32,712 nucleotides of DNA from assembly GCA_012517145.1 (NCBI GenBank), contig JAAYVM010000143.1, positions 1 to 32,712 on the forward strand, in the 5' to 3' direction. The notes below the pieces were generated by a model. It was not told the origin of the DNA and did no database searches. It saw nothing but the letters and a program-made list of their open reading frames with translations. Of this stretch, positions 2,493 to 17,656 are shown one piece after another. Within the stretch, counting starts at the first letter, position 1. Each line of letters opens with the position of its first letter. Source of the DNA: Acholeplasmataceae bacterium (GTDB lineage: Bacteria; Bacillota; Negativicutes; Acidaminococcales; Acidaminococcaceae). The position numbers were made by a program, and so were the translations under genes.

Positions 2493-2696
2493 TTATTGTT
2501 CTGTTTTATAGCGTTTGTTGAATTTTTCAATACGGCCGCGTGCTGCCATATTACGTTGTTGACCAGTAAAGAACGGATGGCATTTGGAGCAGACATCAAC
2601 GTGCAATTCATTTTTTACTGAACCTGACATAAATGTATTTCCACAGGCACAAACCACTTTGGTTTCGCCGTATTTCGGATGGATTGTTTCTTTCAT
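2493..2696 (-). CDS. rpmE: 50S ribosomal protein L31, zinc-binding type, copy 1
   Basis: This is the 67-residue large-subunit protein L31, part of the bridge between ribosomal subunits. The zinc-ribbon cysteines are C16, C18, C36 and C39 (CACG and CSKC), so this is the zinc-binding (C+) form. An in-frame start 24 bases upstream exists, but the ATG at 2694-2696 is preceded by AGAGGTG at good spacing and gives the family start [11 protein letters not shown], so I chose it. It is the first gene of the operon read from the promoter at 2742-2770. A second, very similar copy lies at 3640-3846. Confidence 0.95.
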
Positions 2697-2741
2697 CTTT
2701 CTGCACCTCTCTTTAATCAAAACTACTACCTAAGCTTATAA

Positions 2742-3639: not shown

Positions 3640-3846
3640 TTATTTCTCATCAGTTTTATAACGTTTGTTGAATTTCTCGATACGACCACGAGCTGACAAA
3701 TTACGTTGCTGGCCGGTGAAGAATGGATGACATTTGGAACAAACATCAACATGCAATTCGGTTCTTACAGAACCGGACATAAATGTATTTCCACAAGCGC
3801 AAACTACTTTGCTTTCACTAAATTTTGGGTGAATTCCGTCTTTCAC
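3640..3846 (-). CDS. rpmE: 50S ribosomal protein L31, zinc-binding type, copy 2
   Basis: A second L31 gene of 68 residues, very similar to copy 1 and keeping the same four zinc cysteines (CACG, CSKC). The start is probably the GTG at 3844-3846, giving (M)KDGIHPKF, because GAGGTG lies just upstream; the longer in-frame GTG at 3861 overlaps that ribosome-binding site. It is monocistronic, with its own promoter (3908-3936) and terminator. Bacteria with two L31 genes often have one zinc-binding and one zinc-free form under zinc control; here both are zinc-binding, so the usual zinc-sparing explanation does not fit. Confidence 0.93.
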   Translation of the reverse strand: MKDGIHPKFSESKVVCACGNTFMSGSVRTELHVDVCSKCHPFFTGQQRNLSARGRIEKFNKRYKTDEK

Positions 3847-3907
3847 TATCGTACACCTCACTTTACCTAAAACTATTTATAAATAATTTTCAATATTCAC
3901 GGTAGTC

Positions 3908-15616: not shown

Positions 15617-16489
15617 ATGCGAAAACATCTTATATATAACCTTATGACAGCGTTAGGTTGTATTTTAATGGGTATCGCCGTCAATGCCTTTTACATCCCT
15701 CATCAATTATTGAGCGGCGGCATCAGCGGCATTGCCGTCATGCTCTATTATCTGTTCGGCTTACCAATGGGTGTCATAACCATTTTAATTAATATTCCTT
15801 TGTTTTTTCTTGCTTATCGCTACATGGACCGCACATACCCTATAAGAGCACTTTTCGGAATGCTGGCGTTTTCATTTTCGCTCGACTTTTTCAGCTTCCT
15901 CATTCCGTTGGCACCAATACATGATACATTATTCTCCTGTATAGTCGGCGGTACTTTGACTGGTATCGGTGCGGCTTTTCTTTACCGTGTCGGCAGCAGC
16001 AGCGGCGGCACTGACATCATAGGCGCTATCTTCAACAAGTACTATAGCACGGCTATCAGCACACCAGGTTTCATCATTAATATACTTTTGATGAGCATCG
16101 CCGCCTTTCTTTTTGGTCTCGAACCAGCCCTCTATACTTTGCTTGCTTCCTTCGTCAGCTTCAAAGTCGCCAACACCTTCACGGATGGCTTCGACTACAA
16201 GAAGAACATTATCATCATCAGCAATGAAGCACCTGCGATCGCACAAGAAATTATTAAAATCGTCGGCCGTGGCGTAACCTTCCTGCACGGAGAAGGAGCT
16301 TTTACACATCAGCCCCGCGAAGTACTCCTTGTTGTTGCGAAACTTACCCAGCTTGCCCAAATCAAAGGAATTGTCAGCAACATAGATCCCCATGCCTTTA
16401 TGATTATTCATGACGTTACCGATGTCATGGGTAAAGGCTTTACAAATGTCCCTGCTATTAAAACGACGAAAGAAAAAAAATCAGAATAA
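15617..16489 (+). CDS. YitT family membrane protein (DUF161 plus DUF2179)
   Basis: A 290-residue integral membrane protein of unknown transport or regulatory function. The N-terminal part (about 1-190) has five or six hydrophobic segments and the family motifs LLSGGISGIAVMLYY (31-45) and GSSSGGTDII (126-135). The C-terminal soluble part (about 197-280) matches DUF2179 (GRGVTFLHGEGAF). The ATG at 15617 has GGGAGG ten bases upstream; the frame extends to 15548 without a better start. It is a single gene transcribed away from ispE. Confidence 0.9.
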   Translation: MRKHLIYNLMTALGCILMGIAVNAFYIPHQLLSGGISGIAVMLYYLFGLPMGVITILINIPLFFLAYRYMDRTYPIRALFGMLAFSFSLDFFSFLIPLAPIHDTLFSCIVGGTLTGIGAAFLYRVGSSSGGTDIIGAIFNKYYSTAISTPGFIINILLMSIAAFLFGLEPALYTLLASFVSFKVANTFTDGFDYKKNIIIISNEAPAIAQEIIKIVGRGVTFLHGEGAFTHQPREVLLVVAKLTQLAQIKGIVSNIDPHAFMIIHDVTDVMGKGFTNVPAIKTTKEKKSE

Positions 16490-16555: not shown

Positions 16556-16602
16556 CCATTTTCCTGGCACATTATTATTTTAGGGACGTTTTGCGTCCAT
16601 GC

Positions 16603-16631
16603 TGGACAAATTATATCCACTATGTTATACT
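16603..16631 (+). promoter_or_regulatory. Strong promoter of a short isolated transcription unit
   Basis: TGGACA (16603-16608), a 17-base spacer and TATACT (16626-16631) with a TGT extended -10. The predicted start is near 16638, giving a transcript of about 160 bases up to the terminator at 16761-16800. Confidence 0.75.
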
Positions 16632-16663
16632 CAGCTCATAAGATAGTTAAGGGAGGAATTTAA

Positions 16664-16723
16664 ATGACATTCAAAAAATTCTTGGCAGCGTTAATCAATA
16701 CGCATTTCTACCTGGTGCACTGA
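16664..16723 (+). CDS. Putative 19-residue small protein or leader peptide
   Basis: This tiny ORF (MTFKKFLAALINTHFYLVH) has an excellent ribosome-binding site, GGGAGGAA ending seven bases before the ATG, a good promoter and its own terminator, and no gene follows on this strand. The peptide is basic at the N-terminus and hydrophobic in the middle. The same frame reopens after the TGA for 12 more codons to a TAA at about 16759. A run of six A at codons 4-5 would allow a -1 slip into a frame ending LPGALIHEETEDN. I do not recognise it. It may be a small membrane-active peptide, a regulatory RNA with a short ORF, or the remnant of a longer gene. Confidence 0.5.
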   Translation: MTFKKFLAALINTHFYLVH

Positions 16724-16760
16724 TTCATGAAGAAACAGAAGACAACTAAAGACATAAAAT

Positions 16761-16800
16761 AAAGGACGCAAATCCAAAAACGGAATTTGCGTCCTTTATT
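16761..16800. terminator. Bidirectional terminator between the short ORF and ksgA
   Basis: A 13-bp stem (16761-16773 with 16785-16797), extended by two CC/GG pairs and one bulge, is followed on the plus strand by ATTTTTATTTATTT. On the minus strand it starts directly after the ksgA stop and is followed by ATTTTATG. It ends both the small plus-strand unit and ksgA. Confidence 0.88.
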
Positions 16801-16801
16801 T

Positions 16802-17656
16802 TTATTTATTTGTTTTCTCAAACGTATTGGTCAAGGCAGCAAACTCATCCAGCGAAAGAGTCTCACCGCGCCTTTTACCGTCGATGCCTGCCAGTGCCAG
16901 CCAGGTCGTTGTCTGTTCGCTGTCAATGCCCATATTTTTCAAAGCATTGCTTAGCATCTTTCTTCTTACCGAGAAGGCTGCTTTTACTACCCGGAAAAAC
17001 AGCTTCTCGTTCACGATCTGCACCGGCGGTTTTTGTCTGCGTTTGCAAACTATGACTGCCGATTCAACAGAAGGCGGCGGTATAAAAGAAGCCGGCGGCA
17101 CCAGGAAAGAAATTTCCGGCTCCGTGTAGTATTGAATGGCCACTGATAATGCCCCATAATCCTTGCCACCCGGTTTTGCAACCATGCGTTCCGCAACCTC
17201 TTTCTGGACCATCGCTACCATGCGTTCCATCGGCAGCTTCTGTTCCAATAGGTTGAAAATTATCGGCGTAGTAATATAGTACGGAAGGTTAGCAACAACT
17301 TTGAAGTTTTCCTTCGGTACTGCCTTCCTGATATCAAGCTGCAAAATATCTTCATTAATAATTTCGATATTATCATAACCTGCCAGCGTTTTAGCTAAAA
17401 CTGGCAGCAGCCTGCGGTCAAGTTCAACTGCCACAACCTGAGCGCCGGTTTTTGCCAAAGCCTGGGTAAGAGTACCAATACCAGGCCCTACCTCAAGAAC
17501 TGTATCATCAGCATCTAACTCTGCAGCCGCAATTATTTGATTAACAATTTGTTCATCCACCAAAAAATTCTGTCCCAATCTTTTATCAGCACGCAGATTG
17601 AAAGTTTTCAGAATATGTGCTGTGACATCCTTTTTCGCAATAACCGGTTGTTCCAT
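16802..17656 (-). CDS. ksgA: 16S rRNA (adenine1518-N6/adenine1519-N6)-dimethyltransferase KsgA
   Basis: Dimethylates two adjacent adenines in helix 45 of 16S rRNA late in 30S assembly. The 284-residue protein has RLGQNFLVD near the N-terminus, SAM motif I LEVGPGIGTL (54-63), VELDRRL and the catalytic NLPYY at 123-127. I start at the ATG at 17654-17656, with AGAGG six bases upstream; a start 21 bases earlier would overlap rnmV. The ATG lies one base after the rnmV stop, the same coupled pair as in Bacillus. Confidence 0.96.
   Translation of the reverse strand: MEQPVIAKKDVTAHILKTFNLRADKRLGQNFLVDEQIVNQIIAAAELDADDTVLEVGPGIGTLTQALAKTGAQVVAVELDRRLLPVLAKTLAGYDNIEIINEDILQLDIRKAVPKENFKVVANLPYYITTPIIFNLLEQKLPMERMVAMVQKEVAERMVAKPGGKDYGALSVAIQYYTEPEISFLVPPASFIPPPSVESAVIVCKRRQKPPVQIVNEKLFFRVVKAAFSVRRKMLSNALKNMGIDSEQTTTWLALAGIDGKRRGETLSLDEFAALTNTFEKTNK

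What the first reader, a model, noticed from the sequence alone, without database searches (positions are those of the whole stretch)
16603..16800. Isolated mini-gene: promoter, strong ribosome-binding site, 19-codon ORF and terminator
A complete transcription unit of about 160 bases lies between yitT and ksgA and is too short for ordinary gene callers. The ORF MTFKKFLAALINTHFYLVH has near-ideal translation signals. The frame continues after the TGA for 12 codons, and an A6 run would allow a -1 slip to a 28-residue product ending HEETEDN. Candidates are a small membrane peptide, a type I toxin-like peptide or a dual-function RNA.
Basis: partly seen in the sequence, partly recalled or inferred. 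Interest (0 to 1): 0.7.

Follow-up and report, generated by a model that had tools for sequence, protein, structure and literature searches.

The report
Sugar-switch-controlled 19-residue peptide gene
Between two ordinary genes of a gut-type bacterium lies a genuine, conserved but unannotated gene for a 19-residue peptide, which by its control sequence is probably switched by the cell's glycolysis regulator CggR; it is one of a previously unnamed family of very small peptides in the Acidaminococcaceae.

Summary
The unit at 16583-16806 holds an extended -10 promoter, a strong ribosome-binding site, the 19-codon ORF MTFKKFLAALINTHFYLVH and a terminator. Nineteen of 59 genomes of the family, in eleven genera, hold a homologous unit. 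Substitutions fall mostly at synonymous sites, length is fixed at 18 or 19 residues, and some genera carry two peptides in tandem. The proposed -1 slip product is not conserved. The 12 codons after the TGA contain a separate mini-ORF, MKKQKTTKDIK; a mini-ORF of 5-12 codons ending at the foot of the terminator recurs in 16 of 19 units (3.2 expected). The window's best match to the 45-bp B. subtilis CggR operator lies there (30/45), and the genome has one cggR, before gap-pgk. Species without cggR almost never have the peptide. Best explanation: a stand-alone micropeptide gene repressed by CggR and released when fructose-1,6-bisphosphate is high; the peptide probably tunes a metabolic or membrane protein (inferred). 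A type I toxin or leader peptide is unlikely. No Pfam match; only a sub-threshold NCBIfam one.

The parts
16583..16619 (+). CggR-like operator: GGGAC-N7-GTCC-N5-GGACA with a weak fourth half-site TATCC; overlaps the -35 box
   Evidence: Best match in the whole window to the 45-bp B. subtilis CggR operator, 30/45 at 16579, next best 26; conserved before 18 homologous units
16603..16631 (+). Promoter TGGACA-N17-TATACT with TG extension (TGTTATACT)
   Evidence: most promoter columns invariant in an alignment of eight units
16651..16657 (+). Shine-Dalgarno GGGAGGA, 6 nt before the ATG
   Evidence: Direct reading; strong SD in nearly all homologues
16664..16723 (+). 19-codon ORF MTFKKFLAALINTHFYLVH plus TGA (peptide type A)
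   Evidence: Homologues; purifying selection
16727..16762 (+). Terminal mini-ORF MKKQKTTKDIK plus TAA, ATG 3 nt after the first stop, TAA at the foot of the terminator
   Evidence: Mini-ORF at the same place in 16 of 19 units (3.2 expected), 12 with SD (0.5 expected); here without SD, so reinitiation would be needed (inferred)
16756..16806 (+). Intrinsic terminator, hairpin plus T-rich tail, shared with convergent ksgA
15617..16489 (+). Upstream neighbour yitT (not part of the unit)
   Evidence: PF02588 6.6e-56 and DUF2179 1e-20
16802..17656 (-). Convergent neighbour ksgA (not part of the unit)
   Evidence: PF00398 9.8e-69

Best explanation
A stand-alone gene for a 19-residue peptide, member of a family of 18-19-residue peptides of the Acidaminococcaceae. 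Shown by comparison: the ORF is a conserved coding sequence with its own promoter, ribosome-binding site and terminator, and its promoter carries a conserved operator. Inferred: the operator is bound by CggR, the fructose-1,6-bisphosphate-sensing repressor of glycolytic genes. Bound CggR would block the -35 region, and high fructose-1,6-bisphosphate would release it, so the peptide would be made during glycolytic flux. Inferred more weakly: the free peptide, hydrophobic with a conserved aromatic pair and a C-terminal Val/Ile-His, acts in trans by binding a central-metabolism enzyme, a transporter or the inner membrane, in the way SR1P, VcdP and SpfP do elsewhere. The terminal mini-ORF brings a ribosome to the foot of the terminator and may couple translation to termination or to RNA stability; this is a guess.
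For: Conservation: profile hits down to E 1e-10 to 1e-14 in eleven genera of the family; mostly synonymous change; fixed length and conserved C terminus; tandem pairs in G016, G033, G027, G071, G072, G017. Operator: a pattern made from operator plus promoter, at 1 mismatch or fewer, finds 18 genomes of the family and each has a peptide unit behind it; the only other hits at that level are one before fucO (G017), two before a solute-binding-protein type of site (G010, G022) and a probable contaminant. CggR: best operator match of the window, 30/45 (operator sequence from PMC11229326), with the same 20-bp GGAC-to-GGAC spacing; G000 CggR has PF21715 CggR_N 84.9 bits and matches B. subtilis CggR at 8e-76, sits before gap and pgk, and has a related site in front of it. 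It is the only PF04198 protein of G000. Co-occurrence with cggR: 18 of 19 peptide genomes against 23 of 40 others, p 0.005; inside genus g14 3 of 3 against 1 of 11, p = 4/364 = 0.011 by hand (one search counted one genome too many and gave 0.009). Trans action: neighbours differ between genera while the unit stays whole.
Against: No transcript, ribosome profile or peptide data. The operator before cggR itself in this family has 21 rather than 20 bp between the GGAC boxes, so another regulator could own the 20-bp sites. The right half-site, the stronger one in B. subtilis (PMC11229326), is the weaker one here, outside G000 and G009 above all. G068 has the unit but no detected PF04198 protein (89% complete). 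23 genomes have cggR and no unit found. The co-occurrence tests ignore shared ancestry. The same operator precedes transporter and catabolic genes not known as CggR targets. Type A peptides are only weakly amphipathic. The function of the peptide has no direct support.
Confidence: 0.6

Rival explanations
1. Dual-function RNA: the transcript is mainly a base-pairing regulatory RNA under carbon control and the peptide is a second function, as in SR1/SR1P or VcdRP.
For: Short transcript with a strong terminator and a metabolic operator; SR1 and VcdRP show that the arrangement exists.
Against: The 5' leader varies from about 30 to 80 nt and is not conserved, and the third codon positions drift freely; operator, promoter and codons are what is conserved. 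No Rfam match.
Confidence: 0.2
2. The peptide gene is controlled by a different regulator that shares GGGAC half-sites, not by CggR; the rest as in the best explanation.
For: 20-bp versus 21-bp spacing at cggR itself; other genes behind the site are a solute-binding protein, dctP-, kduI- and fucO-like ones; G068 lacks a detected cggR.
Against: 30/45 match to the CggR operator in register, best of the window; absence with cggR inside genus g14; G000 has no second PF04198 protein.
Confidence: 0.25
3. Type I toxin: a small membrane peptide silenced by an antisense RNA.
For: Short hydrophobic peptide with a positive N terminus; tandem copies in some genera.
Against: No antisense promoter-like site over the ORF, no Rfam antitoxin, a strong SD close to the promoter, a shared metabolic operator, no match in viral contigs.
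Confidence: 0.05
4. Leader peptide of an attenuator: translation of the ORFs controls the terminator and so the next gene.
For: A mini-ORF stop lies at the foot of the terminator in 16 of 19 units.
Against: In the ksgA context the next gene is convergent, and the downstream gene differs between genera (glpK-like in G068, a DMT-transporter-like gene in G002, others).
Confidence: 0.07
5. Chance ORF behind a promoter for ksgA antisense or spurious transcription.
For: Nineteen codons are short.
Against: Conserved in eleven genera and several contexts with synonymous drift.
Confidence: 0.02

Closest known systems
SR1/SR1P of Bacillus subtilis (39 aa, PMC8152036)
   Same: Small stand-alone transcript with a small peptide, in the Bacillota, controlled by central-carbon regulators (CcpN, CcpA); the peptide acts on GapA.
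   Different: No sequence likeness seen; 39 against 19 residues; SR1 is expressed under gluconeogenic conditions, whereas a CggR-repressed gene would be on under glycolytic ones.
VcdRP/VcdP of Vibrio cholerae (29 aa, PMC8672173)
   Same: Carbon-regulated short RNA with a small protein that acts on a central enzyme (citrate synthase).
   Different: Repressed by CRP, other phylum, a base-pairing part is proven; no such part is shown here.
SpfP of Spot 42 RNA in Escherichia coli (15 aa, cited in PMC11188072)
   Same: Peptide of similar size from a carbon-regulated short RNA.
   Different: Encoded inside a known regulatory RNA; binds CRP; no relation in sequence is claimed.
CggR regulon of Bacillus subtilis (PMC11229326)
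   Same: Operator sequence and spacing; CggR orthologue in front of gap-pgk in this genome.
   Different: B. subtilis CggR is described as repressor of the gapA operon; a peptide gene as target was not found in the papers searched. There the operator lies at +32 to +77, here over the -35.
YdgU small membrane protein (NCBIfam NF052476)
   Same: Weak local match of residues 7-17.
   Different: 15.8 bits against a cut-off of 24: not a member.

Membership tests
CggR-controlled gene | CGGGAC-type half-sites in the CggR arrangement | tested here: met
   30/45 identity in register, best of the window; fourth half-site weak
CggR-controlled gene | cggR orthologue in the same genome | tested here: met
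   PF21715 and PF04198 over cut-off, cggR-gap-pgk order
CggR-controlled gene | Same operator in front of cggR itself | tested here: inconclusive
   Related site present but spacing 21 instead of 20 bp
CggR-controlled gene | Binding by CggR and release by fructose-1,6-bisphosphate | not testable with these tools
   Needs purified protein
Type I toxin-antitoxin | Antisense RNA overlapping the toxin gene | tested here: not met
   No promoter-like site on the opposite strand over the ORF; no Rfam match
Type I toxin-antitoxin | Toxicity on overexpression | not testable with these tools
   Needs an expression test
Dual-function RNA | Conserved base-pairing segment outside the ORF | tested here: inconclusive
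   Leader not conserved in length or sequence; pairing with targets was not searched
Conserved small protein family | Homologous ORF under purifying selection in several genera | tested here: met
YdgU (NF052476) | Score over the curated cut-off | tested here: not met
   15.8 bits against 24

The most novel reading that the evidence does not exclude
A new family of glycolysis-switched micropeptide operons: one or two 18-19-residue peptides plus a 5-12-residue terminal mini-ORF whose stop codon sits at the foot of the terminator, all under CggR, through which a fructose-1,6-bisphosphate signal is passed to a protein target. The terminal mini-ORF would be a translation-termination device of its own.
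Probability: 0.4. Interest if true: 0.8.

Novelty: new variant of a known kind. Interest (0 to 1): 0.62.

Why it matters
It adds an unannotated, diverging family of peptides of under 20 residues to common gut anaerobes and gives it a candidate regulator, so that function can be tested directly. It suggests that CggR, described as the repressor of the glycolytic gapA operon, also controls a peptide gene. It shows that an operator pattern finds peptide genes that a sequence profile misses: the g14 peptides (MLERIVAFLSEIEILPLE) were found only that way. The mini-ORF at the terminator is a recurrent feature for which I know no precedent.

Tried and rejected
-1 slip product: rejected, not conserved. 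Read-through of the TGA: replaced by a separate mini-ORF. Type I toxin: no antisense signal, no Rfam match. Phage origin: no phage-record match to the region and no viral-contig match to the peptide pattern. Wider distribution: the profile found nothing convincing outside the family in 380 genomes of the class and 398 of the phylum; the weak hits in other families that were inspected were inside other genes, out of frame or without a start. G256 carries a site identical to that of G036 and is probably contamination. Known families: none in Pfam; NCBIfam YdgU below cut-off. Paper searches for a peptide of this kind or a GGGAC regulon in Negativicutes found nothing relevant. Structure prediction was not possible: the peptide is below the 30-residue limit.

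Full report
1. The thing itself. The stated unit is in the sequence: promoter TGGACA-N17-TATACT with a TG extension (16603-16631), SD GGGAGGA, ORF 16664-16723, hairpin terminator 16756-16802. It lies after yitT and converges on ksgA.

2. Conservation. A DNA search of relatives found the ORF in three other genomes, and a profile made from them found more. Named members are Candidatus Avacidaminococcus intestinavium and Phascolarctobacterium faecium DSM 14760, so the family is the Acidaminococcaceae (my inference from these names). Peptides include MTFKKFFQALINTHFYLVH, MTFKKFFQALINTHFYLVR, MTFKKFFNALIETHFYLMH, MTLQKIINALINTHFYMVH, MTFKKFVEALCNMKFYMVH and MTIQKFVKAMCSLKFYMVH. Between G000, G004 and G009 nearly every synonymous site has changed (0.75-0.99 of sites) while 4-9% of nonsynonymous sites have; random placement of the same number of changes gives as few amino-acid changes in 1 of 5000 trials or fewer. 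The stop codon stays in place.

3. The operator leads to the rest of the family. The pattern GGGAC-N7-GTCC-N5-GGACA was searched in 59 genomes of the family, then with the promoter added. Every match with at most one mismatch, apart from one before a fucO-like gene in G017, is followed by one or two ORFs of 18-19 codons with good SDs. Two types occur: type A, 19 aa (MTFKKF...FYLVH), and type B, 18 aa (MLESIVKALYKVQFYYVH, MLEKMLKAFYEFQVLYIH). In G016, G033 and G017 A and B stand in tandem; in G027, G071 and G072 two B copies do. In genus g14 the peptide has drifted to MLERIVAFLSEIEILPLE. In P. faecium (G002) the promoter at the ORF has no operator; a GGGAC-type site lies further upstream.

4. 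A terminal mini-ORF. Between the last peptide and the terminator, 16 of 19 units have an ATG mini-ORF of 5-12 codons ending within 12 nt of the stem foot, mostly with the stop directly against it; 3.2 are expected from resampled spacers. With an SD it is 12 against 0.5. The units are related, so these counts are not independent, but at least six separate groups show it with different sequences (MKTKYKI, MDSNWIK, MLNEDKH, MKQDFKN, MHSEL, MKNKFSKAKALR).

5. The regulator. The B. subtilis CggR operator is TGACGGGACGTTTTTTGTCATAGCGGGACATATAATGTCCAGCAA (PMC11229326). Slid without gaps over both strands of the window, its best match is 30/45 at 16579; the next is 26. The genome has one PF04198 protein, a CggR with the CggR_N domain, closest in the PDB to a chain named Central glycolytic genes regulator (8r3g, 8e-76) and encoded before gap and pgk. 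A related site, CGGGACTCAAAAAGTTCCGCGAGGGACAAAA, stands before cggR, with one extra base of spacing. Peptide units and cggR co-occur, clearest inside genus g14, where the ten species without cggR have no unit. The tests do not correct for ancestry, and the g14 table held one genome too many; the corrected p is 4/364 = 0.011. From the biology of CggR (DNA released on binding fructose-1,6-bisphosphate, PMC11229326) I infer expression during glycolysis.

6. Function. Not shown. The peptides are hydrophobic, weakly (A) to moderately (B) amphipathic as helices, short and rather polar for a transmembrane helix, with a conserved aromatic pair and mostly a C-terminal His. Genomic neighbours change, so a trans role is likely. 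Known carbon-regulated peptides of 15-39 residues act on GapA (SR1P), citrate synthase (VcdP) or CRP (SpfP), and a similar role is the most economical guess.

7. Verdict. Observation confirmed; interpretation partly right. The slip product and toxin readings are not supported. It is a new peptide family with a probable regulator; the kind, carbon-regulated small peptides, is known. My confidence that it is a real coding gene is about 0.97, that CggR controls it about 0.65, and that it acts by binding a metabolic or membrane protein about 0.5.

Noticed in passing
L095 (G000:C97:1743-1779), also L082, L083, L085, L088, L090: The same GGGAC-type operator, in G000 with four half-sites, precedes an ABC-transporter solute-binding protein gene (SBP_bac_6, 6e-28) in several genera: a possible extended CggR regulon.
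   Followed up: partly
L080, L092, L077: GGGAC-type operators also stand before a dctP-like, a kduI-like and a fucO-like gene; these names are from my reading of the translations.
   Followed up: no
window 2493-2720 and 3640-3861: Two rpmE-like (ribosomal protein bL31) ORFs about 1 kb apart, flanking a thioesterase-like ORF; both keep the cysteine pairs.
   Followed up: no
L057 (JAAYIB010000047.1): A contig labelled Acholeplasmataceae belongs by its genes and by the genome search (same contig as G009:C202) to the same family as the window; probably mislabelled.
   Followed up: no
L180 (G256:C118:5295-5343): A genome of another family carries an operator and promoter identical to those of G036: probably bin contamination.
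   Followed up: no
L140, L141, L158: Downstream of the peptide units in three genomes of genus g17 lies TTGAGAATGAGTATAAT or similar, which looks like a Fur box of the next gene.
   Followed up: no
L136 (G068:C34): The gene after the peptide unit reads as a glycerol-kinase-like protein (MSKYIMSLDLGTTSCRSILFDKKG).
   Followed up: no
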